Assembly (NCBI GenBank): GCA_032358255.1
Contig: JAULBX010013096.1
Location: 36,701 to 100,700, forward strand
Reading direction: 5' to 3'
Source of the DNA: Heterotrichella gracilis
Taxonomy: Eukaryota > Sar > Xanthophyceae > Tribonematales > Xanthonemataceae
Length of the DNA: 64,000 nt
The notes under the pieces were generated by a model. It searched no databases, had not been told where the DNA came from, and saw only the letters and a list, made by a program, of their open reading frames with translations. This document shows, one piece after another, positions 7,153-56,991 of this stretch. How positions within the stretch are numbered: the stretch's first letter is position 1; every line of letters begins with the position of its first letter. Position numbers and translations under genes: made by a program.

Positions 7153-8448
7153 AGCACGGGATGGGAGGGCGCAGGGGCATGGCGCTTCCTGGGATATGCC
7201 CAAAGCACTGGCGCTGGCACCCAAATCAGGAAAGAATCGAGGAAGGGGGCGCGCAATTTATATGCAGGGAACACAAGGCCATCGACTCACACCTGGTCAC
7301 CCGAATGTGTGCAGCCAGCTGGACTTGATATCAGCCACTTACCAGTTGTGATCGGTGCCAAGTTGTGCCCCTGGCAGTGCGCGGGTCACGCGAGGCGCGC
7401 AGCACTGGGTGGGGTCAGGATGGCAGGTGCTGCACAGTCGTGGAGCGGGTGGCGCACAGATAAATAGGGGAACAGGATATAGCACTGCCAGGGTTGAATT
7501 GCATCATTACTAAGCCCATCTGTCCATAGCATTGCCATCCACTGTGTGGAGCGTTTTGGATTCTTGTGGCGTTCCCTCGCTGCCAGCCACAGCGGCAACA
7601 GTACTGCAGTGAGTGATACCGATGTCGATCCACAGGACAGTGGATACATACTGCAAAAAGCGCAGCGTACAAACTGCAAGCACCCACCAGACAGCATCAC
7701 CAGCAGCACCAAAGTCTACTCAAGCTGAATGCAAGTCATTATTCTTTTTCTAATCCAAATCCAGTTGAAATTAAATTGTCTTTTATTTTTCGGTCTCCAG
7801 TGCCTGCTATCACCTTGCAGCAGAGCCACGCTGGGCATGCATGCATATGCACGAGTTCGAACGGTAAAACGTTGTTTCTTTGGCACAACAGAGAAGACTT
7901 CAACAAGTCTGCAACTTATATTCGCCTTCTTTAACCCCGGACCTAGGCTGCCCTAGGACTTCTTCCACTGTTCGCGGTACACACACTGTGTGACACAGTC
8001 AGGCACACCCACGGTTGTCACACGGACTGCGTGCAAGCCCCGCTTGCGCTCGTAACAACTCAGAGCTGGAATTGAAACCACAGCTACCTTGACAGGACAG
8101 CTTGACCTTGGGTCCTGTGAGTGGCACAGGCCCACTTGACACAGCCAGCCAGCCACCAACCAGCTTGCGAGTGGAGCACTGTCCCGGACGTCATCAGGCA
8201 CCAAAGAGCGGAAAGAAGGTGAGGGACAACGCACAATATGCTTCAGTGCTATCTCAAATAAAATGCGAAGGCTGTGCCTTGTGTATTGTTGACGCTGCAC
8301 GCAGTGTACCAGTGCACACCGCCCAGCACACCCTCCTGTGCACACCCCACAGGTGCAGCCGGGCCTGTGCCCCACCACTGAGACACCAGGCGGCAGCCAA
8401 AGCCAACCCCTCATACCCTGCCTCAGCACAACAGGCCAGTTTGAGGTC
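7153..8448. other. PTEN 3' flank and mTERF 5' flank
   Basis: No exon was recognised. The stretch changes from GC-rich (3' UTR-like) to an AT-rich patch at about 7735-7800, then a TGCATGCATGC cluster near 7837-7850. No clear TGTAA polyadenylation signal follows the PTEN stop. The mTERF promoter should lie in the right half. Confidence 0.5.
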
Positions 8449-10202
8449 ATGGCGCTGCCACTCCCAAGCTGGCGGTTACAACCACACGCCCTCTTCCGAC
8501 AAGTACGCAAGGTATTTTGCTCTCACCAACTGTTGCCAGCACCAATGTATGTGCCCTGGAGTCTCTATCCATCCATCATCTCCCGCCAAGGGTGCCAAAT
8601 TATTGCTCTGAAATCAAAACTTTACCCATCTCCGTGCGCCCCCACCACTTTCCCAGTCCCCTGCTGCCCTGCTTACATTCCTCATCCGTTCAGGTCCACC
8701 CATGTTACATTCGCCACGCAACCCCCCTGCAGATCCAGCATCCGGTTGTGGCACAAGCCAAGCGCTGGGGTACTTCTGATGACGTGCAGCGGGAGGGCCT
8801 GGCTGCACTGCTGGCACAGCGCCTGCATGTGGACCCCACCGCCAGCCGCAAGGTGTACAGCGGGATGCGGCGAGGGTCGGCAATGATGGCGGAAGAGCAA
8901 CGGGTGCAATCGGAGAATACGGTGGAGAACGCGCGGGCGGTGCTGGATTGGGTGCTGGTACCAGGGGGATACAGTGCAGAGGAGGCTGCTGCACTAGTGA
9001 CCAACAGCCCATCCATCTTGGCGCGCGACCCGGCGCGGCTGGAGCGCACTGCCAGGATTATAGAGGACTTCGGCTTCTCCGCCAGCGAGCGCCGTGTGGT
9101 GGCCAGTAGAGCCGCCAGCGCCTGCGACCGGGGGGAGGAGCTGCTGGCGGTGTGGGAGGACCTGATGGCCGTGGGGATCTCTCAGGCCGACCTGCGCACC
9201 CTGTTCCTCTCCCTCAAGGCGTCTGCCCTGGTCAGGGTATCGCCGGACACCGTGCGCGCCTCCCTCCAGCAGCTCCAGCAGGAGTATACCGCCCAGGAGC
9301 TGCCGCAAGCCATCCTGCGTGCACCCAACCTCCTGCTGGTGGCCCAGTCGGACTCCTACCAGCAGGTGTCGCAGTACCTGGCGGAGCGGGGGTGGCCCCA
9401 GGCGCAGGTTGACGCCCTCATGCAGCGCGCCAACTCGGGCTACAGCTCCAGCGCCTTTGCCAGGATCAAGGCGGGGGTGGAGTTCCTGGAGGGGAATGGG
9501 CTCACCCCCGCCCAGGTGCAGCGGGAGTACCTGCGCCACTGCAAGAACATGCCGGTGGCCAACTTTGAGCCCGCGATGGAGTGGCTGGAGCAGGACATGG
9601 GCCTGACCACGCGCCAGGTGACCACCTGCATGCAGTCGGGGGGGTGCAGGGTGGTGGGCGTGCCGGTGGACAAGCTGCGTGGGAAGGTGGAGGTGCTCCT
9701 GTCCGACTACCATGTCCCTGCCGACCGCTTGCCAGCGTTGCTGTCGCGCGCCCCCATCCTGTTCTCCCTCAGCCTGGATGACAACCTGAGGCCCAAGCAG
9801 CGGCTGTTTGAGGAGGAGTGGGGGTGGGGCCGGGACGAGTTTGGCAACCTGCTGGGCACTGCCAGCCCCGGGATCATGCGCAACCTTGACCAGCTGCGCC
9901 TGCGACTGGCGCTGCTCCACGGCGTCATGGAGCTCACCCCTGCCCAGGTGGTGAAGAACGCCACGGTGTGCCTGAACCACAGCCTCCAGCGGCTGCAGGC
10001 CCGGTGGTACCTTGTGAGGGAGAAGGGGGTGGAGGCGGCATTCGCGGTGCGCATGGGCAGCGGCACAGACAGCGGCGCGATGGGCATGAGCGTGAGGAAC
10101 CTGTTCAAGAGCAGCGAGGAGGAGTTCTGTGAACGGGCCGGGGTGGCGGTGGCGGAGTACCAGCTGTACTTGGCGAGGTTTGGTGGCTCTGGTGGGAAAT
10201 AA
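8449..10202 (+). CDS. mTERF-family organellar nucleic-acid-binding protein
   Basis: Two exons, 8449-8511 and 8694-10202, joined in phase 0 (aag|gtattt donor, ttcag acceptor), encode 523 residues. The first exon codes only for an Arg-containing, Asp/Glu-free presequence (MALPLPSWRLQPHALFRQVRK), typical of mitochondrial or chloroplast import. The long second exon contains successive helical repeats of the mTERF type. These show the alternating pattern of a loop with Gly or Val, then LxxLLxxxPxLL-like helices, for example YSAEEAAALVTNSPSILARD (near 160-180) and VPADRLPALLSRAPILFSLS (near 425-445). mTERF proteins bind organelle DNA or RNA and act in transcription termination, intron splicing or ribosome assembly; algal MOC1 is one example. 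Which organelle and target cannot be told from sequence. I prefer the upstream ATG to any in-frame start in the long exon because it adds a credible presequence through a normal intron. Confidence 0.88.
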
Positions 10203-11047: not shown

Positions 11048-12874
11048 TCACTTCCTGAACCCCCAGCCCCATGTGAAGTCGGGGTCTGCCGCCAGCTCCT
11101 CCAGGGTGACTGCCTTCCTCCCCTGGTTCCACGCAGGCTGGGGCAGGCCACCATTGCCGTTGGTGAAAATGTCCAGCAGCAGGTCGTTAAACACAGACCA
11201 GATGTCTTCGTTGGTGCGGTAGGCCCTGAGCTCCTCAGCCGTCACGTAGGTCACATCCAGGGGCTTGCCTGGGGGTGGGAGTGAGGGGGGGCGGGTGAGT
11301 GGGTGCGGAAGGAGGGCTGCAGCGTAGGTCAGTGGTGGACAGGGTGCGCGCAATAGTGGGCACGCATGGGTGTTGTACATGCGCTGGTGCTGTGGGGACG
11401 CCACACAAATATATCTGCATTGCCAATACATTCTGGGCCAGACATTGTCAATATATTATTGACTTTATGCACCCTCAACCGGCTGTGCCCAGCACCGCAC
11501 TTGCACCACCTGCACCCCCTGGTTCATATGTGGCATGTACCTGATGCCTTGATGATCTCCACCGCGCGGTTGAGGGTCAGCTCCTGGCCCTGCAGGGTCA
11601 CCTCGGCGTTCTTTGAGGCGGGGTCCAGCAGCACCTCAGGCAACCAGGCACCGATGTCGCTGAGGGCAGTGGCGGCAAAGGGCGCGTCGGGGTTGCCTTT
11701 GAGGGTTGCGGTGCCCTCGGGCACGTTGAAGTAGAAGAAGGGAGAGAAGGTGGTCTCCAGGAATGCGCCTGTGAGTGGGTAGGTCCACTCCAGGCCCGAT
11801 GCCTCGATTGCCTGGCGGATGCCCAGCTTGTAGCCAAAGGCCTTGGCGGCCAAGGGGTCCTCAGCAGTACTGCAGGAGAGGGGGGTAAACTCGGTTTAGT
11901 ATGAGGGAAGGTAGCATGCACTGCGACAATTCGGGAGAAATTATCCCCAGCACTTCTGCGACAAATGGATGCAGCAAGATAGGCTTCAAGGCTAGCTGCA
12001 GAAACAGGAAATTTTTCCTGCTGATGTGCTCTTGCTGCAGCATTGTTCCAACACGCAATGTGCCTACTCACGAGATTGCAGCATTGTATTGTTTGAATGG
12101 ACCGTTTGGTAACCCAACACCGTAAGACAGAAATGTCAGTGTGAAGTGCCGGTATTGATGCACGGGTGCAGACTTACACTTTTGCCACGTCCACGCCAAA
12201 CTCTGATGGCACAAAGCGCCTGACCCCCGCCGCCTTGGCCGCCTCCAGCAGCGGGAACTGGGCTGGCAGAGCAAAAGCGCCCACCGCGCTCACCACCACG
12301 TCAACGCCTTGCAGGGCAGAGGTGAGTGATGCGCTGTCCTCGTAGTCCACCTCCACCACTGCTGCCCCCTTGGAGGCAAACTCAGACAGCTTGGTGCTGT
12401 CGCCGCCCTGCAGAGAATGGGGGAAATCTATTCGGAATGGGGTACCCGGCGGGTGGTAAAGAGGGGAGCTTGCAGTGCGCGTCCTTGCTATGCCACTAAA
12501 TAAGGTCGTGCAATGCTAATAAATGCAGCCAGGTAAGCCAGGATGCAGACGAGGGGAGGGGAGGGGAGCATGTGCAACCAGGTGACCAGGTGCAGTCCCA
12601 ACCGGTGTATGCTGAGCTGCACAGCTTTCTTGTGAGTCCGCCAACGAGGTGCTTAACCAAGAGCAGAGGATGTGACAAGACATGAACATGTTTTCATGGG
12701 TTATGTGTGTCTTCAGGCGTGCAGCAATGGGTGCCAAGCCTGCAAGCGAGTGGTTTGGTTGGCCCCTACCTTGCGCGTGAGGAGCACCACCTCGTACTGC
12801 GGGTGCGCGAGGAAGCCGTCAGTGAGGTGGGCACCCAGGGTGCCACCGCCACCGACGACTGCTACTTTGACCAT
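11048..12874 (-). CDS. NmrA-like / isoflavone-reductase-like NAD(P)-binding protein
   Basis: Four minus-strand exons (12874-12770, 12407-12178, 11869-11541, 11268-11048) join in frame to 294 residues. The start MVKVAVVGGGGTLGAHL carries the Rossmann GxxGxxG dinucleotide-binding loop at about residues 8-14. GVDVVVSAVGA (about 80-90) and RRFVPSEFGVD (about 108-118) are hallmark strands of the NmrA/isoflavone reductase/phenylcoumaran benzylic ether reductase group. A Lys follows in EDPLAAKAF, near the position of the catalytic Lys of plant members. The remaining half (PLTGAFLETTFSPFFYFN and the WNQGRK tail) matches the length and order of fungal and algal NmrA-like proteins. Substrate is unknown; these proteins are either reductases or NADP-sensing regulators. 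The predicted protein has no obvious targeting peptide, so a cytosolic location is likely. Confidence 0.88.
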
Positions 12875-24734: not shown

Positions 24735-27700
24735 ATGGGCGAGGTAGGGGAAGCCAGGCGAGCCGGGGAGGAAGCCAAGGAGTTGGTGAAGGAGGACAGT
24801 GGCGACGATGGGGGGCGGGAGGGTCTGGTCGTGGCGTTTAAGGTGGGGGGATGGGGGCCATGCCGCGATGCCATACATGACGTAATTTGCTCAGCATGAT
24901 CCACACACCAAAATGACCATGTTTTCACAGGGTAGCACCCACTTTTCGAATCAAATATTGTACCGACGCTTGCCAGACTGTTACAACTTGGTTGGTTGTG
25001 TCCTTGGGAAGTGCTGTGCGCACTGCTGTGCACCTCCAGCGTGAAGCCACAAGTCCCCAGGGTGAGCAGTACCACAGGCCCCGGTGTATGGTGTGGACGT
25101 GGGTGCAGTCCAGGGGAAGGGTTTTCACATATGCATGCATGTCACCCTGGCCAGTGCCTAGAGCCTGTGCCCCCCCGCCCCTCGTCCCCACACCTAACCT
25201 CATGGCCCCTTCTCCCCTCCCCCCACCTCTCCAGGACCTCAGCTACACCGTGCCCCACCACTCCACCAGCAAGCCCGTGACCCTGCTGGAGGGGGCCTCG
25301 GGGTACCTGCGCCCAGGGGGGATGACAGCACTGGTGAGAGGGGAGGGTGGTGGGAGCGGAGACTGGCAGCACGGCCCCTGCCTTATGTTGGCAGCCTGCA
25401 TGCACTGTGCTGGGGTTGCAGACTGTTTTCATTATTTTTCAAGGCATAGCTCTCTATTTGTGTAAATCTATGTCTTTTTACAATTAATCCTAAATTGTGT
25501 TTATTTTTTGTCGTTTGAGATTTGATTTAGAATATTACCAGACAGATGCACAGTGTTGCGGAGTGAAGTGTCCCAATGGCGCCCTCAGTGCACGCATTGC
25601 CAGCAGTTCACGACCACATGCCGATCGTGCCTGGGTTGTGGTGCAGCCTTGTGTATGCGCTGACCTGTCCATGGCTGTGCCTGCAGATGGGGCCAAGCGG
25701 GTCGGGCAAGACAACGCTACTAGGTGAGGCGGTGGAACACACGCGGATAAACAATTCACCTCCATGCTACATGCCCGGCGCAACATGCATTGCCCAAATG
25801 ATTGCCATGTGCGTGTATGTTTGCCTCCGCCCTCCCTAAAATGCTCCCCCCCTTGCCCCTCAGATGTACTGGCTGGCCGCAAGACTGTTGGCACCAGCAC
25901 GGGCCAGGTGACCTTTGGCGGCAGCACCCCCTCGCCCAACTTCCTGCGCAGGTTCACGGCATACGTGGAGCAGTTTGGTGCGTCACCCCATTGGGGCCAA
26001 GCACGCACCACCCGCATGCACTGCCTCCAGTCATGGCCTCATGGTGCATCTTGGGTTAGTTGCACTGCATGGGCGTTGCCCAGCTCAACATGCACAGCGA
26101 CAGGGTGAAGGAGATGATGCCCATCGTCTGCATGCATCTGGCCACAATGTACCCAAACATTGCATGTGCAACCCAGCAGATGGGTGTGGCTTGCAATGTC
26201 AGTTCTATGCACCGTCCGAGCACCATGCGTTGATGTGCCGGACGTGCCGCCAGTGTCCACAAGCACCCCTGTACACATGCATGCCCAGCCTGATGCTCCA
26301 CCCACGCCCTCTTCCGCAGATGCCCTGGTGGATGTGCTGACAGTGCGTGAGATGCTGCTGTACACCGCACAGCTCAAGCGCCCGCAGGCGGAGGGGCGCA
26401 AGGCGCATGCAGCGCGCGTGGACCGCGTCATTGCGCAGCTGGCGCTGGATGGGTGCGCGGGGCTGCGCATAGGCAACGTGCTGGCGCGCGGCATATCTGG
26501 CGGCCAGTGCAAGCGCGTGAACGTGGGCATGGCGCTCCTGTCCGACCCACAGGTGCTGTTCCTGGATGAGCCAACCACGGGGCTGGATAGCTTCACTGCC
26601 AATGAGGTGGGGTGCTAGGGTTTGGTTGAGGGGTTTAAAAGCCATCTTGTGGTTGGTGGATGTGTTGCCCTGGTGGTGCCAGTCTCATGTGGGCATTGCT
26701 TGCACGATGTTAAGCCCTGCATGCGGTATGTGGGGAGGAATTATGGGTGCTGCCATGTGGCGCAAGTATAAGGATGCAGCGGGGCAGTGGTTTCCTTGGT
26801 TTCTAGTCTGGTGCTGGGTGTATACCGATGCACTGCGTCTGCATCCTCACATCCTTCATCTCCCAATTGGTCATATGTGTCATATATTGGACCCCCTTCC
26901 CCTCCCCTCCAGGTGATGACAACTGTGAAGGGGCTGGTGGCTGGGGGCATGACCATCTGCGCCACCGTGCACGCCCCCTCCCCCTACTGCTTCAACCTTT
27001 TCACCCACCTCCTCATGCTCATGGGGGGGAAGGTGATCTACTTTGGGGGGTGCGGGCAGCAGGCAGTGGAGTACTTTGCACAGGCGGAGTACGCCGCGCA
27101 GGTGGAGAGGGAGGGGAAGAGCGATGCGGAGTGGATCGTGGATATCACCTCGCGGGTGCGTGCTTGCCATGCCATCTAGGGGGGATTTTATTGGGGTTGG
27201 CTGGGGGCTGTATGACATGGGAGGGAAGGGGGGATATGTCTTGTCGATGGCGGGGTGCGCACAGGGGCTTAAATGCTATGCGGAGAAGGCTGCGAGTATT
27301 GCCTGCTTAGGTAGGGAAACGGGCAGCACATTTAGGAACATGTGCCCAGAAGAGCTGCTATGACCAGGAGGAGTGGCCAGCCTCATGTCCCCCATCCTGC
27401 CCTAAACCCTTCCCCTTGTGCAGGCTGAGCGCGACGGGTGCCATGAGCAGCTGCAGGGGGCGTACGCTGCGTCCAGCCAGCGGGTCGAGACCCTGTCTAG
27501 GGTTGACGCACACCTGGCGCAGCCTCCCTCGCCCGCCCTGGTGGCGGCGCAGCAGCTTGCCGGGCAGCGGGCAACTGAGACGTCATTCTGGTGGGGGCTG
27601 TGGGTGCTGCTGCGGGTGAGGAAACACTGCACTAGCCTAGGGCTGTGGCCAAGCACCAGCTTGTGTCCAGTCAGTGACGTGTAAGAGTCCAATGAAAAAC

Positions 27701-37031: not shown

Positions 37032-40000
37032 ATGGCCAGCCCCCCCGCGTCCCAGGCTTCCGCCTCCTCAGGGTCCACGGACCTGGAGGCGATGCTGGAG
37101 GCGGAGCTGGGTGGGGACAGCGACAGCGAGGGAGAGGGGGCGCAGGGAGCGGAGCAGGAGGATGGGGAGGAGTTGCAACGAGCCGATGAACGCAGCAATG
37201 GGTAGGTGTTGGTAGGAAATGGCCATGGTGTGATGGCGGTGTATGGCCAGTAGAATTGCAGCTGCATTGGGTACAGGCATGCTTGTGTAAACTCGTGTAT
37301 CCCTGCTTCGAAAGCCATGCCTGCTCTCTTCTACTTGAAAATTTATCGGAAACTCGCACCTTTGTACATTAGTTGTAGCCTGCCCCCAGTGTGAGCGTCG
37401 TTTTCTGTTCCGTAACATATGCATGCATTGCCCCCTCCAAATGCATGCACATGCCATACGCACATGGCAGCAGTCCCAGGTCAGCAACGTGGTGCAAGTG
37501 TACTGCATTTCTATCAGAAGAGCACTATCTCAAAGTCTGCCCATTTGCTAGCGTATGGCCACTGCTTGGTACTGGCACCTCGTGAATTGCCCTCTTGACA
37601 CCACCAGTACCCCCCCACAGACCCAGTGCGTCAACTTCCAGCCCACCCTCCAAGAAGCACAAACCAGGTGGGTGGCACAACTTACTCGTGCATGGCCTAC
37701 TTGCATTCAGCACTCCCCATCACCGGGCGCTCCTGCAGGGTCAGTCAGCCCCCGCCTGGTGTAGGACAATGCCCCACCGCTGGCCTTCCCACTCACACCT
37801 GGTTCTCAAACTTCACCTCAGGTGTCGCCGCAGAGCCCCTGTGCCCCCCGCACCCTGGCTACATGTTTGGCATGTGCATACGCTGCGGGCGGGCCAAACC
37901 GCAAGGGGAGGAAGAAACCAGTGCTGGGGTAGCGCTCAGGTGGGTGGCGGTGGTTGCAGCAGAATAGTGCCATACACGGGTACCTCCATGGCCCACAATT
38001 ATTTCCCTTCAAACATTGTGGGAACACCATTTTCCGCAACCACTCTCCCATCAACAGTTCTGATATCCGATATGACTTAGGGGTGGTAATAGAGGTAACA
38101 CCAGCCAGTGCCTGGCCCACATTTGCTACCTGCTGCAATGGCTGGTGGTGCATACTAGATCTGCCCATTTTGGGTATGCTCCCTGGCTTTACCGCATGCT
38201 GCAATGCCCGCAGCATGGGCCCCGCGCACCCCGTTGAAAGCCCCCCTGCCCCGCAGGTACATCCATCGAGGGCTGGAGATATCTGGGCAGGAGGCGGACA
38301 GGATACGGTGAGGGGCACGTCCACCTGCACACCTTGACAGCCATGACTGTGCGCTGAAACACCGCCCAGGAGCCTGTGTACCACTGGCCCAACATGGTGC
38401 CGCTCGCCTCTTCTGCGCCGCTGATGCACCTGCATGCATGATGTGGCAACATCACACATGACACCGCACGTGGTCGCGCACCCGCATCCACGTGGCAGCC
38501 CACACATGCACACATGCCATATGCGCCTGGCACCACACCCACACAGCGCACCAGCATGCAGCGCTGTGGCATGACGCATGAGCACGTGGTCATCCAGCTT
38601 GCATTCCCCTGCCAATGCACATCGCCCATCAACACCCCACCCACTCCCCCGCAGTGCCGGGTCCAAGGCGGCCCTTGCCTCCGCCCGCAAGCTGACCCTC
38701 ATCCTGGACCTTGACCACACGCTGCTCAACAGCACGCGCATGCACGAGGTGGGGGCCGAGCGGCTGCAGGCAATGCAGGACATGGTGCAGGCGGAGGAGG
38801 GGAGGGAGCACAAGCACCTGTTCCCGCTGCCACACATGAGGATGTGAGTGGGAAGGAGGGCGGGGTCAGCCACTGAGTACGCCCTGCCATTGCCTCACCA
38901 CTTGGCACCACGTGCCTTCCTGGCACTGCCACCTGTGGGTCACCCCCGGGGCCTAGCCTTGGTCCCGCCATACGCGGCACTACCTGGCCAGGAGCAGCAT
39001 GTACCCACAACCCACACCATCATTGTGTGGCACTTCCAAACCCCATCCTCACCCAAGTGCACATGCCCGTGCCACTCCTGGTATCACACACCCATCCCTA
39101 GTTGGTCGACTACTCCCTGCCACCTTCCACCCACGCACCCCCACCCCCACCCCCACCCCCATCCTCACCAGGTGGACCAAGCTGCGTCCCGGCGTGCACA
39201 CCTTCCTGTCCTCCGCCGCCTCCATGTTTGAGTGCTACATCTACACTAACGGGGACAGGGAGTATGCGCGGGAGATGGCCAAGCTGCTGGACCCGGGGGG
39301 CAAGCTGTTTGGGGACAGGATCATTGCGCAGGTGGGGGAAGGGGGGTAAAGGGGAGAGGGGCGGCTGGAGGGGGGGAGTATTACACTGGTGTGCAATGCG
39401 GGGTGTGGAACTGCAATGGGTTAGCGCCATGGAGTGCAGAGGCCATTGCATGGGAACCAGGGAAGGGCGGGTGGTGGGTGTACACAGCATCCAGCCTGGA
39501 GAGAAGGGGCAGTCATTGTCCGCTGGGCTTGGCCACATATTGCTGCATGCGTACCGCCCGCTGCCCAGTAGTGGCGCCATCAATATGCACATTGGCAATC
39601 AACACCATTGCATGCCCCCCCCCCCACATATCTCTCTTCTCAACCACAACCCCCTTCCCCTCAGTCCGACAGCACCACCCGCTATGTGAAAGACTTGGAC
39701 ATAGTGCTGGGCGGGGAGGCGCATGCGCTCATACTTGATGACACGGATGCGGTGTGGCCCAGGCACAGGGCAAACCTCATACAGGTGGGAGGGGGGAAGG
39801 GAGACTGGGGCACGGGTACTATATGATACATGTATGCAGAATGGAGGGGACTGGGGCGAGGCCTACCCGGTGCAGGTGGTGGGGTGGGGCATGTGGGCGG
39901 CACAAAGAAAACTAGATTCAAGGAGGGAGGCATGCTATTTGCTGCACCCTGGTGTGACCCCCAAGGACTCTGCGCACATCCTAGCACCAGGTTGCCGCAC

Positions 40001-47943: not shown

Positions 47944-50900
47944 TCAGTACTGCTGGTTGAGGACTGTGACGGGTATGTCCAGCAGGCCGAAGATTGAGTG
48001 CCAGATGCGCGGCCACTCCCAGGTCTGCGGCAGGTGGGAGGGTGGAGTCAGGGCACATGCACCACCAGGGGCCAAGCACATGCAGCGCCCACAGGCAACT
48101 TGTCACTGTGGACACATGTGTTTTGATTCATCAAGGCACATCAAAACCGTTCCCCACAGCGCTCATGCACTGGGACCCCCCTTCACCGCTCAACTCCCGC
48201 AACCTCTCGCCACCCACCACCCCAAGCACCCCTCCCCTCCCCCCTCCCTCCCGGTCCCCCTGCCCACTCACCAGGTGCTGCAGGTGCCACTTGATGTGCA
48301 GCTCATCCACACGCGTGAGCAGCCCCTCCTGCAGCAGCCGCGACAGCACAGCATGCTCCCTCCCCAGCAGGTCCAGCGTGAGCACCACGTAGTCATCGGG
48401 ACCAACCTGCTTGGACAGCCAGGCAGCCACATCCACCGACAGCATGCGCACGTCCTTGCCGTACTTGATCTGGTCGCGCACGCGGGTCACGGGCTGGGGC
48501 TGCTGCCGCCAGGGCCGCCAGGGCGCCCACAGGCCGTCAACCTGGGGGGTGGGAGGTGGGCGGTCAGGTGCCACTCGGGTTCCCCATTTGCTGGGGTGGT
48601 GCGGCTGAGTGCATGCATGTGTATGGAGTGGTGTGATGCGGGATGGTCACCAGCAAGAAGCAGCCGCATGGCACACAGCTATGCCTACCTTTGCCACCCC
48701 GTTTTCATCCAGCTTGTCTGTCTTGATGCCGTCATCAAAGAGTAGCAGCAGCAGGTCTTCAAGGGGGATGTCCTGCCTGAGAAAAACAAAGGAAGGAATC
48801 GCACATCAGCAAACCACTCCCCGACATATATATCAGTGAATGGCATCAATCTTGCTACATGTACAAATAGACATTTGACCCAAGGGACTGATCTTACATA
48901 ATAGACACATTGGCAAGATGCTGGCAGGCACAGCACTTCAACTAAGGCTGTGCACATACATGCAGGCCATGCACCCATCCACCCACCAAACGGATGGGTG
49001 GTATTACTTGGCCACCGCTGCGACTCCCATTGCATGCATCCCCTGCCCCCCCCCACCTGTTCACTCCCGCCGTGTTGACCACCACGCTCTCGGTTGCCCT
49101 CCCCGCCGCCTCGTTGTAGAACGTCACCTTGTGCTTCACCCCCCTCAGGCTGGCCAGTATCTTCTTGCGCATGCGCAGGTTGGCGCTGCCCGCCTCAAAT
49201 AAAAAGATGTGGTAGTCGGAGGCGTCCCAGTGGCTGTCCACAAAGGCACGCAGGTTGTCGCCAGAGCGCACCGCCAGGTCAGCGTACACCTTGCTGCAAG
49301 GGGGGAGGAGTGGGTGGGTGGGGCGGGGACAGGGGCACAGGGCATGTGTGAGGAGGTAGGGGCAGGCGGTGTGCATGCGGTGGGGCTGTGTGTGTGCTGG
49401 CCCTGGAGTTCATATATGTTGCCACAGCATCTGCTTGCACAAACCAGTGCAATGGCCTTGCCACCCATGATACCCTCACATTAACATGCTGGTCGATGCA
49501 GTTTCAACCCTGTCAAGGCCACGCAGGCTCACGCACACCACCCAGCCCCCTCACCACCACACTCACCGATCTACCTTCGCCCTGAAGCGCGGCTGTCGCC
49601 ACACCTGCAGGTGCTGCACACCCGCAATGAACATCTGCATGCCCGCGCCCCACGCGTGGGGGGAGTCAAACGCAACGTAGCGCCCTACGCAACGTGCAGA
49701 GGTGGGATAAGTGAGTGAGAGGCACTACGCCAGCCAGTACTCATCTATTCCAGAGCGGGTGACCCCTACTGGAAGTAGGTGCAACCACCCTGCACCCTTT
49801 GCCATGCACATGGCTTAAACCAAGCCAGTGCATGTGCTGCCCTCCCTGTTGCCCCTCGACCTGCACTGCACTGGCGCCCATTTCGTCCAAAGGCCGGCCA
49901 CGCAGGATGCAGGTCGCAGAGTGCAGGGGGTTGCATGCAGGGTCCCACTCTTTAGGCCCCAAACTGGGGCGCGGTAGTTTTTGATCCAGTTATTAACCAT
50001 TGCAATACAGCACAGTTTTTTGTAAATTAACTGTCAGGTACCCAACAGCATATGACCTTCTGAGTGACGACATACCTGGTACGTAATTACTCACAACGTT
50101 ATTCTGTGTTGTATACCTGGCAAACAAAGTACAAAAAACTGTGCTAATTGTCTTCATTTGCAAATAAGACAGGTTCGTTTATTTTCCATTAATGATTAAA
50201 CGCCAATACAATAAAGTTACTAAAGGCAATTGTAATATAACATTGATGGCCGTTTATTACAATACAACTTTGATGGCCTTGTCTGCAGCCCCTGTGCGGC
50301 CTGGGCCTGTGGTACGTTTCTGCAACCTTGCAGCATGCAGCTAGGGCACTCCATGTGAGGCGCACCTGTGGGGTCAAAGCGCGGCGCCGGCGTTGAGTGC
50401 GTGTAGCCTGGTCCCGGCCAGCCTGTCTGCGGGAACGCGCCCAGCAGCCACGTGGCGTTGTTGCGCATGTCCCACACGTACACGCGGCGCTCAGGGTGGT
50501 AGCTGTCCTGCAGCAGGTGATGGCGGCTGCCGCCCCACAGCTGGCACTTGCCGTCGCCTGCGGGGGGTGAAGGTGGGTGCGGGTGGGTGCGGGTGAGGAC
50601 ATGTGCGCAGTGGGGTTGGGTGAACAGTGGGACAACGGAATGGAGTGGACAGTGTTCACACTGCCTAAGAGGGGTCAACATATGCACAGAAAGTCGAAGC
50701 TCTACAAAAAGAAGGAAGTTACTTTTTAATTTACTTTTAATTATAATTTATTAAATAAGTTAAGAATTGCATGTTGTTCAGCCACTCACCCTCTCGCGCG
50801 ATGCTGTCTGGCTTGTACAGCTTGGTCACCCGCACCCTGTTCTCCACCATGTACACACCCAGCCCGTCGCATATGAGCAGCTGGCCGTCACTGAGGTAGT

Positions 50901-53900
50901 GGTGGTGGCTGCCCTCAGCCAGCGGCACGCGCCACAGCTTGCCCCCGCGCACATCCACCGTGAACACAAATGTGACAAAGCCCTCGATGTCTGCGCAGGC
51001 ACCCACGCGGTACAGGAACACCACGGAGTCGCTCTCCGCGTTGAACTGGGGGGGTGGGGGAAGAGGGGGGTTAGGGACAGCCAGGGTTGACCTGTGGGAG
51101 CGGGCGCACATGTGGATCATGACACCAAGGTCAGCACACCAAACATTATCTTCGTGTGGCAGGGCTGGGCAGTAACAAATCCATACCACCATGCAGGCGC
51201 GCCCTGTGCATGTGCGCACTCACACTTATGCCACCCATCCGTTCGCTTCCCGGTGTTAATTTCAATGCATGCAGCAGTTCCAACCCTGGTCCCCTACCTG
51301 CGGGTGGTTCACCCAGTGGCTGCAGCGCACCAGCAGGTCCTCCCTCAGCCTGTTGGGGAAGCGGTAGGGCAGGCCGGTGATGGGGTCGTGGGGCCCACTC
51401 ATGGGGCCGCTGGCAACCGCGGTGTACAGCTGGCGCAGGCTCACAAGCAGGCGGGCGGGGGGCGGGGGAGGGGGGGAGCCTGGCGCGGGTTCAGGCAGGG
51501 TTGTGTTTTGTGTCATGTCCACCAGCCACAGGCCGTCGTCCTCGGGGCATGTGCGGTTGATCTGCGCGTCTAGGAAGCCAGGGGTGGTGGTGTAGCCAAA
51601 GCCTGGGAGGGGAGGTGGACGCCGGGGTGAGGGCCAGTAGGGGCGGTAGGGATCAGCGTGGAGGTATGGCAGTGGGGACAGGGCATGGGGACTCGGGCAC
51701 ACTCAACCTGGCAGCAGTGCCGCATGTTGAACTACCATGCCAGCAGTGCATCATCAGGTGCTTGCTAGCTGCATTGTCACATTTCACGATTGGCTGTGCA
51801 TGCGCCTGGCCCTGCTGCAACCCGCACCTTTCCTGGCCAGCTCCAGGCGCCCAAAGTTGATGCTTGTTGCCAGTGCGCCGTCAGGCGACACCTGGTACAC
51901 AGGGCGCGGGTAGCGGTGCAGCTCTGTGCGTGTGAGTGGGTCAAGCAGCACGGCGCAGAAGTCGTCGGGACCCTCGCCACTGCCGCAGCCCCTGGTGGTG
52001 GTGGAGGTGGGAAGTGGAGGTGGTGGTGGGGGTGGTAGGGGTCATGGTGCGGGGTCAGGGGCAGGCGTGGTGCTCTTCACAGTATTCAGGCGCCCACTGT
52101 GTGTCCACTGCGTGCATGTGCACGCCGGCGCAGGTGGCGAGGTGCATGGCCGTATTGCATGCAGGTGTGGGCCGTAGGGAGCAGGCACAGGGGATGGCAG
52201 AGGTACTTGAATGCCTACCAGGCAGTGCTTCAGCACTTTTTGTGTTTGCATGTGACCCTAGTGAAGATGCCCGTGGCCTCACCTGTCATTGTAAACAATT
52301 GCCTGTCCGCTGGGCATCCACTGCGTGTGCGGTCCCATGTGGTAGTTCCAGGCGCGGGAGGTGGCCAGGGGGGTCCAGTCCCACACGGGCAGGCCGGTCT
52401 TGTCGCGGGTGGCTGGAAAGGGGAAGGGATGAGGTCAGATCTGTTCAGGTCAGGTGCAGAGGTGATGTTCAGTGTACCGTATACAGGCTACCATTGCTGG
52501 CGCTGCTGCACCATGTGGCTACAGCACCATGACAGCTGCCTATGACATGAACCCATACCATGATTGCAGTAAGACTTATTGGACATGACGAGGCATGTGT
52601 ATGCCCCGACCCCACCCCATGCCCCCCTCACCTGCCGCCACATTGATGACCCCAATCTCCACCTCATCACTGATGGACAGGTCCCTGGGAGTGAGCCGCG
52701 TGTGGTGGCCAAGCATGCGGGCACTGTCTGGGGACCAGGATGCTCGGTCGTGGAAGCCAAAGAAGTGGAAGCCACGCGTCCAGTTGGTCAGCATGTGGAC
52801 CTGGTGGAGGTTGGAGAGGAGGGGGGTTGATGCAGCCACATCAGCAACAGGCATGGCCTGGCTCACTAGTGCTGGCCACGGCATGCAATTCACGTCGCTG
52901 CGTGTGCATTTCGCGCATGTGCGTTCTTCACGCAAGCGCTTTTGTTTGTGCCCACCTGTGTTGCATTCACCACCGGCATGCGGTCCCCCCTTGCCTCCAC
53001 CTGGCGCCGCACAGTTGACCACAGCGCAGCCTCCTCGCCGCACTGCTGCAGCCGCTCGTGGATGTACCTGGGGGGCAAAGGGGCAGGAGGTGCTGAGGGA
53101 CGGTGCAGAGCCATCGGCGCAATGCACCCATCCACACCCACACATCGTTCCACAGCAACACACCCATGGCCAAACCTCACCCCTGGATGCGCAACCCCAT
53201 GGCAACATGTGTACTCTGGCCCCCCCCCCCCCCCCCCCCCCCCCGATGCGCCACCCCACGGCAACATGTGTACTCGCCCCCCCCCCCCCCGCACGCCCCA
53301 CACGCCTGCCACACATGTGGGTGCAGCGCCCATCCACCTCCCTTTCGCCCTACCTCATCTGGTCGGTAGTGTCCACCTTGTGCATGATGAGCCAGCCAGC
53401 GCACACGTCGTCCACCGCGCGCACAGTGAGCAGGTCCCAGGGGGAGTAGCCACCCGCGGGCATGACAGGGTGGTAGCAGCAGTGGCCCGCTGCAGTTTTC
53501 ATGCGTGGGTGGTCCACCCTCCTCAGGTTCATGCCCAGCACCCAGAACCCAAAGGTGGCGTCCTCGTTGGGCATGAACTTGAGGGGGGCGATGGCGTTGA
53601 TCTCAACCAGGGCGCGCGCAACGTCCATGGAGAAGATGTACCTGGGTAGGCGAGGTAAGGAGGTAGGTGGGGCGCACCGCAAGCAATGTTTCAATGGTTT
53701 GTTACCAGGGGGCATTACCATTATGTTCAGCCAAAGGCTAAGCCTTTACAGGCCACGGTTTCTTGAGTGGTTAAATATAATCTCCACTGTAGGTAGGAGC
53801 GTGTGCGCATGATTCTTCCCTTGCCAACATGCGGTGGTGGCAATGCGGTGCGTGCATGTGATGTTGTAACTATGCTTGACAGTACCATGCGCGAGCTAGC

Positions 53901-56900
53901 GCCTGCCCCCTTCATGCTCCCCCGACCACTCACCCCCCTCCAAACATGTATGGCGCATACTCCTTCAGCCCCGTCAGCCTGAAGTACTCGGTGTTGCTCC
54001 ACTTGTGGCCCTCCTCAACAATCACCTCCCCGTTGCGCTTCTCGTACCCCATGTACAGCCGCTCGTCGGAGCAGGAGGGGTCCTCGCACAGGGAGCGGAG
54101 CTCCTGCGGGGGTAACAAAGGGAAGTTGGGGTGCGTGCATGTGCATGTGAATGGTTTGCTCCTGCTGAGGGGTGAATCTGTGAACCAAAGCATGCTTGCG
54201 GAATGGTGATCCAGAAAGGGCTTGGGATGCCTGCTACTAGCTAAGAACCCACAGAGCACACACATGCACTGTTCCAGATCATGCTATTCATTGCCCCCAT
54301 CTCCCCATCCCCACAGCACCCCCCCCCCCTCACATTGACCAGCTTGAGGCAGTCCACATACGCGTCCTCATCAGTCTTGAGCACAAACTTGGGCGCCGCG
54401 TGTGCCACCAGCCACTCTATGAAGTAGAATATCTTATACACAATAGAGCGGTAGCCGCTGCCGCTGCCATTGCGCACAAACACTATGTCGCCAAACTGAG
54501 CGGCCTCCTGCGGGTGACAGGGAAGGAGTCAGAAGTGTGCAGGGCGCTGAAAAAGCAGAGGGGGGAAATTTACTTTTCAAGTTTTAGAGTAAATTAAAAG
54601 AAATGCATATTTTAGCAAATATGTATTTCTTTAGGATTCAACACTAAACACTAAATCCAATCCAAGCTGGCACATATCCAGTAATTAAGAAACAGTTTCA
54701 CTATTTACTGAATTGAATAAAAAAGATTTACATTTTATAGTTTACTTTTATAGTTTACATGTATAAACCCTACACGTCAGTGGACATGCACTGCCACCGT
54801 TGCCCAAACCCACAGCATGCCCTGTGTCCCCGCTGCCCCATCACTCGCGGCATGCACTGCATCTGAAGCCCCATCATCCCAGTCCAAAGCATGCTCTGCT
54901 GCCACCCTCCACCACCCCCAACCGCAACTGCGCTGCAGCCCCCTGCCCGCTTCCCACCCCCCTCCAGTTTCCCCACCTGGTCCGCCACCAGCGTGCGCTC
55001 CTCCTCCGCCAGTATGAACCTGGTCATCACCTCAGGGGGTGCGGCGCGCGCCCAGGTGTCACGCACAGACTGGCGCTGGGCACCAGAGCGGGGGGTGGAC
55101 AATACCTGGGGGGGAGCAGGAGGCGGGTTGGTGAGGCAGGGCAAGGGGCGGCGCACACGGGGGGCAACAGTGCAATGCCATGCTGCATGCTTGGACAAGG
55201 ACCTGCTGCCAGCTGGTAGATGTCCAGTGCAGCCATTACATATCCCTCAACATGGCTTGCTGTTTGAACACCATAAAACCACAATATGCCCCACCACATG
55301 CTATTGCCATCACCACATGCCCCACCGCATGCTGCTGCCGCCACCACATGCCCCCCGCCAGCCCCCCTGACCCACCGCAATGAACAGGAAGGGCTCCGGC
55401 AGCTGCCCCTCCATGCCCGGCAGCACCGCATAGCTGAACCCGCGCCCTGCCTCGGTCCAGTTTGCGTTTGCCAGCACCGTCTTCTGCTCCCTCAGCCTCG
55501 CAATGTCTGTGCGCAGGCCGCTGTACTCGTCTGCCAGCTCGCTCAGCCACTCAACACCGGCGGCGGAGGGGTCAACAGGGCAGGAGGTCTCACGGGAGAC
55601 CTGGGGGGGACAGGTAAGGGGGTAATTGAGAGGTGTGTGGACACACGGAGCATGGCGGCATCACATGGCATGCACAGCCTGTGATGCTACCCACCCGGCA
55701 CGGGGAAGCAGATTGACAGTGACTGACCATTGGGTTTTGGGAAGATGTACATGCCACATATGTATGGAGTGGTAATGGATGATGTTGCATTTCACTCGGT
55801 CGGCTGCCGGCAATCATGGGTCACCCTGCCCCCCCCCTTCCCACCTTGTAGTGCAGCACCAGCCCCGTGAGGAAGGTCCATGCCGTGATGCCGAGCGCCA
55901 GCAGCAGGAACAGGCGACGCGCGCCGCTGCTGCCGGCAAGCGCACCCAGCTGGTGCACAGAGCCTCTGCGGGGCAGGTAGCCGCCAGCGCCAGGGGTGTC
56001 GGGCAGGAGGCTGCCCTGTGAGGAGGTACGGCGCCAGGGACGGCCGCTGGTGTGAAGGGGGTCTGGGGACAGGGGAGGGAAAGGGGGTCAATATACTGGT
56101 AGGACGCAATGGTGTGCACAAGGCTGGCGTGCAGGCAGTGGCTGCACACATGAGGGGATGGGGGTCAACACACTGTCGGGCCGTTAGTGCGCACAGGACT
56201 CGCGCGCAATGCAGTGGGTGCATTCAGGAGGGTACCGAGGCTGTGTACCATTGACTAAGGATGCATGTAAGAGCGGGTGTGCACCGTACCATGGGTTGCC
56301 AGCGGCGCGTGCCCCAAGCTGTTGAAGCTGCCGTGGGAGGACTTGCGGGTCAAGCCCTTGCCCTCTGCAGGGGAACAAAACCCTAAGTTAGTGGGAACAA
56401 ACCCTAGACAATGGCAAGCAAGGGGAACGCCCATCTGGGAGAAGGCTGGATGCACATACTTGCAGGAGGAGTGGGATACCTCCCCACAAGGTATGTGCAG
56501 CACCGACCTGGTGTCCACCTGGGGTGGGTGGTATGCAGCAGTGCAGCATAGGCCATGGGGAGCAAGCAGACACTGTTCGGGTTCTGCTGTGCATTTAGCT
56601 GAGACTTTAAACAGGTACCAGCAGCACCAAACCAGCCCAACAGCCCAGTAACAGCACTTGTCCAGGTGTCTGTGCGCAGCGTAGTTGCCAGGGCAGGCAG
56701 TGGCTGTCATGCAGGGCTCGCACAAGGCACTAGCGACAAAGACAAACTGTAAACGCGCCAGACACCAAAGCATGGTTCTTTTGTTGGTTTAGCAGCAGCC
56801 TGCCACCTCATGCATATGAAGGGACACAGGGTGAGAAGGACAAGCATGGGAAGGAACCACCACCACAACACTTAGGTCTCCACACCAAAACCCTCCAAAC

Positions 56901-56991
56901 CCACGTCAATAAACGACCCGAAAACCTGTTTCTTGCCTACCCACAACCCATAGGTCACGAAGTTTCCAGGGCCACCCTCACCTTGCGACAT
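47944..56991 (-). CDS. Fusion protein: GT31 galactosyltransferase + TolB-like beta-propeller + FkbM-like methyltransferase
   Basis: Twenty minus-strand exons: 56991-56982, 56364-56290, 56062-55845, 55600-55376, 55105-54977, 54507-54334, 54103-53934, 53641-53354, 53067-52956, 52800-52632, 52412-52283, 51991-51828, 51602-51298, 51045-50790, 50557-50366, 49684-49567, 49293-49057, 48776-48689, 48541-48272, 48024-47944. They total 3411 bases, 1136 residues, all phases matching. Residues 79-98 (LFLLLALGITAWTFLTGLVL) form one signal anchor, as in Golgi type II enzymes. The GT31 domain (about 177-430) has STPRSGAQRQSVRDTWARA, acidic metal-binding TDED near 264-267, and YIFSMDVARAL then NEDATFGFWVLGM. 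The propeller (about 475-905) has FFGFHDRASWSPDS, AWNYHMGPHTQWMPSG, YNDRG, RPVYQVSPDGALA and GRYVAFDSPHAWGAGMQMF. The FkbM-like part (about 912-1136) has KVYADLAVRSGDNLRAF and VVLTLDLLGREHAVL. The 10-base first exon is inferred from phase and context; the rest is well supported. Confidence 0.85.
50009..50145. mobile_element. MITE-like element with 16-bp perfect terminal inverted repeats
   Basis: agcacagttttttgta at 50009-50024 is repeated exactly in reverse complement at 50130-50145, bounding a 137-bp AT-rich segment inside the intron 49685-50365 of the fusion gene. Size, AT content and perfect ends fit a miniature inverted-repeat element. I cannot define a clear target-site duplication, so excision or insertion is not proven. 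Confidence 0.55.
53186..53300 (+). repeat. Repeat units separated by long poly-C tracts in a fusion-gene intron
   Basis: A unit starting gatgcgcaaccccatggcaa (53186-53219) is followed by 25 consecutive C. A second copy (53245-53276, gatgcgccaccccacggcaa) is followed by 14 C and a short diverged piece. It is a minisatellite within the intron 53068-53353. The minus strand, which is transcribed, carries the G runs. Confidence 0.85.
54596..54633. repeat. Short hairpin in an AT-rich intron segment
   Basis: aaaagaaatgcatat pairs with atatgtatttctttag across an 8-base loop with one mismatch. It lies in the intron 54508-54976 of the fusion gene, within an AT-rich island (about 54560-54770) that contrasts with the GC-rich exons. 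Confidence 0.5.

What the first reader, a model, noticed from the sequence alone, without database searches (positions are those of the whole stretch)
47944..56991. Three-part fusion: GT31 glycosyltransferase, TolB-like propeller and FkbM-like methyltransferase in one Golgi-type protein
The sequence shows 20 exons on one strand whose phases match at every junction and which total an exact codon number, with no stop or new start between the parts. Known families: GT31 enzymes transfer Gal or GlcNAc in the Golgi lumen, FkbM proteins O-methylate glycans or related substrates, and this propeller type is one I associate with free-standing bacterial proteins. I know of no described protein joining all three. 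Inference: one membrane-anchored polypeptide that extends a glycan, binds it through the propeller and caps it by O-methylation, in line with the methylated sugars of algal walls.
Basis: partly seen in the sequence, partly recalled or inferred. Interest (0 to 1): 0.88.

Follow-up and report, generated by a model that had tools for sequence, protein, structure and literature searches.

The report
Golgi sugar enzyme with two add-ons
A gene that is probably from a green alga appears to encode one membrane-anchored sugar-adding enzyme fused to a bacterial-type propeller and a methyltransferase-like domain; both add-ons have lost key conserved residues, so they more likely help the enzyme handle its sugar target than act as extra catalysts.

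Summary
The minus-strand model 56991-47944 rebuilds exactly: 20 exons, 19 of 19 GT-AG introns, 1136 aa, no internal stop. Exons 2-20 have leave-one-out coding support; the 10-nt exon 1 does not. The order is signal anchor, GT31 (PF01762, E 5e-23), propeller, FkbM-like domain.

The propeller belongs to a prokaryotic family that matched no Pfam or NCBIfam model above cut-off (523 relatives; best E 3e-37). A relative's predicted structure is closest to oligogalacturonate lyase, PL22 (E 1.5e-14), ahead of TolB. Five family histidines align with PL22 histidines; the window keeps two and loses three. The C-terminal domain is FkbM-related, chiefly in its second half, and lacks the motif-I glycine and the DxEGxE glutamate. 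GT31 motifs are intact.

So 'extend, bind, methylate' is only partly supported. Best reading: an active GT31 with two probably non-catalytic accessory modules. A bacterial protein from Palleronia joins a GT2-like domain to the same propeller, but keeps four of the five histidines. No transcript, eukaryotic homologue or structure of the window protein could be tested.

The parts
47944..56991 (-). whole gene model, 20 exons, 1136 aa
   Evidence: splice sites, frame; coding support for exons 2-20
56982..56991 (-). exon 1 (10 nt) with the proposed start codon; weakest part of the model
   Evidence: coding score -3.5, not the best frame
55845..56364 (-). exons 2-3: N-terminal tail and one hydrophobic signal-anchor segment (about residues 78-99)
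   Evidence: Kyte-Doolittle maximum 2.14; the only 19-residue windows above 1.6 start at 78-81
53354..55105 (-). exons 5-8: GT31 galactosyltransferase domain, residues 185-377; D265-E266-D267, E360-D361
   Evidence: PF01762 E 5.3e-23; B3GALT6 9sp7 E 1.4e-22 with aligned motifs; positions
52956..53067 (-). exon 9: linker between GT31 and propeller
   Evidence: in frame, score +15.6
49567..52800 (-). exons 10-16: PL22-like propeller domain, residues about 464-897; keeps H721 and H771, changed at Y735, K812, A866
   Evidence: 181 bits to the HMM of 78 prokaryotic relatives; residues
47944..49293 (-). exons 17-20: FkbM-like domain with altered motifs (D917-L-A-V-R-S-G; D1077-L-L-G-R-E)
   Evidence: tblastn E 3e-5 and 8e-5 to Sinorhizobium and Pelagibacterium loci, the latter annotated FkbM; DUF7870 E 5.7e-4, below cut-off; motif table

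Best explanation
One gene encodes a type II, Golgi-type membrane protein. Its GT31 domain transfers a sugar (most likely beta-1,3-galactose) to a secreted glycoprotein or wall glycan. Behind it, in the same chain, lie two modules derived from enzymes: a beta-propeller of a prokaryotic family related to PL22 oligogalacturonate lyases, and an FkbM-type methyltransferase fold. Both have changed residues that their relatives keep, so I infer that they no longer run the parent reactions and that they hold or orient the glycan acceptor, or stabilise or oligomerise the enzyme, much as the galectin domain is thought to do in plant GT31 enzymes. Shown: gene model, domain order, homologies, residue changes. 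Inferred: Golgi location, donor sugar, loss of catalysis, acceptor binding.
For: Single frame and splice phases, coding support in exons 2-20, one hydrophobic anchor. GT31: PF01762 E 5e-23; B3GALT6 E 1.4e-22 with DxD-type and ED motifs aligned. Propeller: 181 bits; 53 of 93 columns that are at least 93% conserved in 78 relatives are identical in the window. Relative's model (pLDDT 93.6) is nearest to oligogalacturonate lyase 3c5m and 3pe7; global profile alignment with three PF14583-positive proteins E 1.7e-13, five His-His matches. Window: two of the five kept, H234 to Y, H315 to K, H370 to A, and R-C-D of RCDxH also changed; the last two sites lie within one exon, so they are no splice artefact. 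FkbM: motif-I G to A and DxEGxE E to L, against 14 of 14 and 13 of 14 relatives. Long branch of the window propeller, 3.89 against a median of 0.37.
Against: Loss of residues is not proof of lost activity, and PL22 ligand roles are recalled, not tested. The Palleronia GT2-propeller fusion keeps four of the five histidines, so fusion to a GT does not by itself go with loss. The FkbM-like domain keeps the D, G and last E of DxEGxE and the FEA motif. The motif-I part of the FkbM alignment is weak (1.6 bits). No binding site was identified. Host and cell location are inferred.
Confidence: 0.5

Rival explanations
1. One reading: GT31 extends the glycan, the propeller binds it, and the FkbM-like domain O-methylates the product.
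For: Domain order. O-methylated N- and O-glycans are reported in green microalgae and their methyltransferases were uncharacterised in 2020 (PMC7773692, section 16 read). The FkbM-like domain keeps several motif residues.
Against: Motif-I glycine and DxEGxE glutamate changed; no Methyltransf_21 hit at E <= 10.
Confidence: 0.15
2. The propeller or the FkbM-like domain is still an enzyme, with altered chemistry or substrate.
For: Full-length propeller with H717, H721, H771, D and Y positions kept; FkbM-like domain keeps D1077 and E1082.
Against: Three of five PL22-aligned histidines and the RCD triplet are changed.
Confidence: 0.2
3. Two or three separate genes or transcripts lie in tandem and the single model is a false join.
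For: Unspliced intron 8 or 16 would give a stop at once; TGTAA occurs inside several introns; no cDNA.
Against: Phases match at each junction; exon 9 is coding and in frame; the FkbM-like domain has no start codon in its exons; no TGTAA in intron 8 or 16; coding segments run without a gap from exon 2 to exon 20.
Confidence: 0.1
4. The gene is decaying and the altered motifs are drift in a pseudogene.
For: Long propeller branch and motif losses.
Against: 20 exons open with all splice sites intact, strong codon bias in exons 2-20, intact GT31 motifs.
Confidence: 0.05

Closest known systems
Plant GT31 enzymes with a galectin domain (Arabidopsis GALT2-GALT6)
   Same: GT31 catalytic domain plus a sugar-binding-type domain in one ER/Golgi protein (passages of PMC7769824)
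   Different: The extra modules here are a PL22-like propeller and an FkbM-like domain, both C-terminal to GT31
Beta-1,3-galactosyltransferase 6 (B3GALT6; PDB 9sp7)
   Same: Best solved relative of the GT31 domain, E 1.4e-22, DxD-type and ED motifs aligned
   Different: The match covers chain residues 22-230 of 294; nothing in the chain matches the propeller or FkbM-like part
PL22 oligogalacturonate lyases (PDB 3c5m, 3pe7)
   Same: Nearest solved fold of the propeller family; five aligned histidines
   Different: The window has two of the five; no PF14583 hit at E <= 10; fused to GT31
Unnamed free-standing prokaryotic propeller family (L007-L086)
   Same: Full-length homology over residues about 464-897
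   Different: Relatives keep the five histidines; the window lost three and is part of a larger protein
Palleronia sp. LCG004 GT2-propeller protein (L004 6213-9110, 965 aa)
   Same: The same propeller family joined to a glycosyltransferase (annotated GT2; PF13704 E 5.7e-6, 27.2 bits, just under its 27.5 cut-off)
   Different: Different GT family, bacterial, no FkbM-like part, four of five histidines kept
FkbM methyltransferases (PF05050)
   Same: Colinear with the Sinorhizobium and Pelagibacterium proteins L087 and L088
   Different: No PF05050 hit; motif-I G and DxEGxE E changed

Membership tests
GT31 glycosyltransferase | Galactosyl_T (PF01762) match above the curated cut-off | tested here: met
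   82.3 bits against a cut-off of 23, profile 1-193 of 195
GT31 glycosyltransferase | DxD-type metal motif and downstream ED motif | tested here: met
   DED and NED aligned with DDD and SED of B3GALT6
GT31 glycosyltransferase | type II membrane topology | tested here: met
   one N-terminal hydrophobic peak, windows starting at 78-81; by hydropathy only
GT31 glycosyltransferase | sugar transfer activity | not testable with these tools
   needs enzyme assay
unnamed prokaryotic PL22-like propeller family | full-length sequence homology | tested here: met
   181 bits over two stretches 464-654 and 714-897; tblastn E 3e-37
unnamed prokaryotic PL22-like propeller family | invariant histidines H220, H234, H270, H315, H370 (L008 numbering) | tested here: not met
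   kept at H220 and H270; Y, K and A at the other three
PL22 oligogalacturonate lyase | PF14583 match | tested here: not met
   no PF14583 among Pfam hits at E <= 10 for the window propeller
PL22 oligogalacturonate lyase | metal-site and catalytic histidines | tested here: not met
   two of five aligned histidines kept; the roles of these residues in PL22 are recalled
TolB propeller | TolB nearest by fold or sequence | tested here: not met
   Foldseek rank 5, E 3.5e-9, behind PL22 at 1.5e-14; profile search E 0.032; both for relatives, not the window itself
FkbM methyltransferase | PF05050 match | tested here: not met
   none at E <= 10; DUF7870 20.5 bits under its 27 cut-off
FkbM methyltransferase | sequence homology to annotated members | tested here: met
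   tblastn E 8e-5 to an annotated FkbM protein; 38.4 bits over 1044-1108, 1.6 bits over 911-946
FkbM methyltransferase | motif-I glycine and DxEGxE | tested here: not met
   A and L in place of G and E
FkbM methyltransferase | SAM-dependent activity | not testable with these tools
   needs assay

The most novel reading that the evidence does not exclude
A one-polypeptide Golgi assembly line: GT31 adds the sugar, the lyase-derived propeller reads or positions the growing glycan, and a divergent FkbM-like domain with a remodelled active site still transfers a methyl cap, giving one of the so far unidentified glycan methyltransferases of green algae.
Probability: 0.12. Interest if true: 0.8.

Novelty: new variant of a known kind. 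Interest (0 to 1): 0.5.

Why it matters
GT31 enzymes with a sugar-binding-type domain are known in plants (PMC7769824, passages). This would be a different solution: a bacterial lyase-type propeller and a methyltransferase fold recruited as parts of a eukaryotic Golgi enzyme. A 2013 survey reported only fragments of GT31 in Volvox and Chlamydomonas (PMC3797821, passages), so a full GT31 gene of this kind in a green alga would fill a gap. If the FkbM-like domain is active after all, it would be a lead for glycan methylation in microalgae, whose enzymes a 2020 review calls uncharacterised (PMC7773692 section 16); if it is inactive, it is a case of two enzyme folds turned into accessory modules in one protein.

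Tried and rejected
Rejected: 'TolB-like' as the closest kin of the propeller (PL22 ranks first). Rejected as shown: an active methyl-capping domain (motif changes). Rejected: origin of the propeller by a placed transfer; the tree does not place the window (branch 3.89, no starred set holds it, bootstrap not settled, and the program warns that long branches meet).

Led nowhere: no genome held for the window; viral contigs gave no relative for the window propeller or the window C-terminus, and one for the bacterial profile (L090); phages gave no propeller match at E 0.01 and only an E of 10 for the C-terminus; NCBIfam no match and PHROGs only one at E 0.28; the C-terminal query found nothing in seven whole genomes (three, four); a search for more GT-fused propellers with the Palleronia piece found 15 plasmid records, of which Palleronia's own is the only one annotated as a glycosyltransferase. 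Paper searches for the architecture or its parts listed no paper whose title or abstract start describes this fusion; the library lacks most subscription papers and I opened four papers only. Neighbour genes of ten bacterial loci were listed and eight ORFs searched: a sulfatase beside the propeller in L010 and L086, a sugar kinase in L010, ThuA in L032; the others (SIS, histone deacetylase, pseudouridine synthase) say nothing on function.

Rows dropped: L057 and L019 left out of the family profile of 78; 35 of the 80 loci in A2; 2 of 16 FkbM sequences (L105, L111) not recovered and not counted; the first FkbM script read the wrong strand for the minus-strand loci, so its pattern table for those was discarded.

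Full report
Gene model. A leave-one-out codon test puts the model frame first and positive in exons 2-20, with the other two frames negative in 20 of 20 exons. Exon 1 is 10 nt and has no support, so the N-terminus is provisional. A hydropathy scan shows one clear hydrophobic segment at about 78-99, as expected of a type II Golgi enzyme; the Golgi location itself is inferred.

One gene or several. The FkbM-like domain begins a few residues after the last propeller strand with no methionine between them (translation). The GT31-propeller linker is an in-frame coding exon (exon 9, +15.6). TGTAA is absent from introns 8 and 16 but present in introns 4, 5, 7, 15 and 17 and 846 nt after the stop (its role as a poly-A signal is recalled). 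This favours one gene; a transcript is needed.

GT31. PF01762 matches residues 185-377 at E 5.3e-23. The best solved relative is B3GALT6, E 1.4e-22, with the DxD-type and ED motifs aligned. I expect an active beta-1,3-galactosyl- or N-acetylglucosaminyltransferase; donor and acceptor are inferred.

Propeller. No Pfam or NCBIfam model above cut-off covers it. Plasmid tblastn gave 13 records, best E 3e-18. A profile scan of prokaryote genomes gave 529 stretches, 523 confirmed, best 80 kept, best E 3e-37, many in Acidobacteriota, with Planctomycetota, Verrucomicrobiota, Bacteroidota and two archaeal contigs also present. In the 80 loci the open frames are mostly 383-483 aa, that is, free-standing; three start choices run longer (511, 528 and 712 aa) and were not examined for extra domains. 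An HMM of 78 of them scores the window protein at 181 bits over 464-654 and 714-897. The predicted structure of one relative (L008, 35-sequence alignment, pLDDT 93.6) is closest to oligogalacturonate lyases 3c5m and 3pe7 (E 1.5e-14 and 1.3e-13); TolB follows at 3.5e-9, and fungal rhamnose-glucuronate lyases are also listed. A global profile comparison with three PF14583-positive proteins from relatives' genomes gives E 1.7e-13 and puts five family histidines on PL22 histidines.

Of 93 columns conserved in at least 93% of 78 relatives, 53 are identical in the window. Of the five PL22-aligned histidines the window keeps H721 and H771 (the alignment around SHHH could shift by one) and has Y735, K812 and A866 at the others; RCDxH reads HSTPA. 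The five plasmid relatives keep all five, and the GT2-fused Palleronia protein keeps four. The parent reaction is therefore unlikely in the window protein. That the domain binds glycan is inference from fold and company: sulfatases beside relatives in L010 and L086 and a sugar kinase in L010 (eight ORFs picked from ten loci) fit sugar-related work, while other relatives sit by transporter and amino-acid metabolism genes, which do not point to glycans.

Palleronia fusion. L004 6213-9110 encodes 965 aa annotated as glycosyltransferase family 2, with PF13704 at 27.2 bits just below its cut-off and the propeller at its C-terminus, beside phosphomannomutase, mannose-1-phosphate guanylyltransferase, UDP-galactopyranose mutase and sulfotransferase genes. 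It shows that this propeller has joined a glycosyltransferase more than once, but it is one case in 15 plasmid records.

FkbM-like domain. Pfam gives only DUF7870 below cut-off (E 0.0034 for the whole protein, 5.7e-4 alone). Plasmid tblastn finds Sinorhizobium medicae (E 3e-5) and an annotated FkbM protein of Pelagibacterium (E 8e-5). The S. medicae protein itself hits PF05050 (8.3e-11) and DUF7870 (1.9e-4, below cut-off), which links the two. A two-sequence profile scores 38.4 bits over 1044-1108 but only 1.6 bits over the motif-I part. Against 14 recovered bacterial proteins of 16, motif I has A for a glycine kept in 14 of 14, DxEGxE has L for a glutamate kept in 13 of 14, and T for a lysine kept in 12 of 14; the D, G and last E remain. 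Methyl transfer is doubtful but not excluded.

Reading. An active GT31 with two enzyme-derived accessory modules is the best fit (0.5). The three-step enzyme stays possible (0.15). Literature seen: passages of PMC3797821, PMC7769824, PMC12507850 (the word methyltransferase does not occur in its main text) and PMC7773692, and section 16 of PMC7773692 in full; other papers were seen only as search listings. No search listed a paper on this architecture, which is weak evidence of novelty because eukaryotic protein databases were not available here.

Noticed in passing
L004 6213-9110 (Palleronia sp. LCG004 plasmid): Bacterial protein joining a GT2-like domain and the same propeller family, in a polysaccharide-type gene neighbourhood.
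   Followed up: partly
L090 106-1269 (IMG/VR contig, 47292 bases): A propeller-family gene, 53% identical to the bacterial query (611 bits to the family HMM), at the very end of a contig filed as viral. It may be host DNA.
   Followed up: no
L086 4490-5749 and 5857-7146: By eye, a second propeller-like gene (HHFFGYY, AWNLQQG) lies beside the first, with a sulfatase at 8073-9467.
   Followed up: no
window 50009-50145 (intron 15): A 137-base stretch that matches its own reverse complement at 71.5% (E 1e-14), within an AT-rich island: perhaps a small foldback element.
   Followed up: no
window 56075-56232 (intron 2): Two tandem copies of about 82 bases, 73% identical.
   Followed up: no
window 8706-10169 (+): Long open coding segment with an mTERF match, E 2e-16.
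   Followed up: no
window 11548-12413 (-), 26319-26609 (+), 39134-39334 (+): Segments matching NmrA, ABC transporter and NIF phosphatase families.
   Followed up: no
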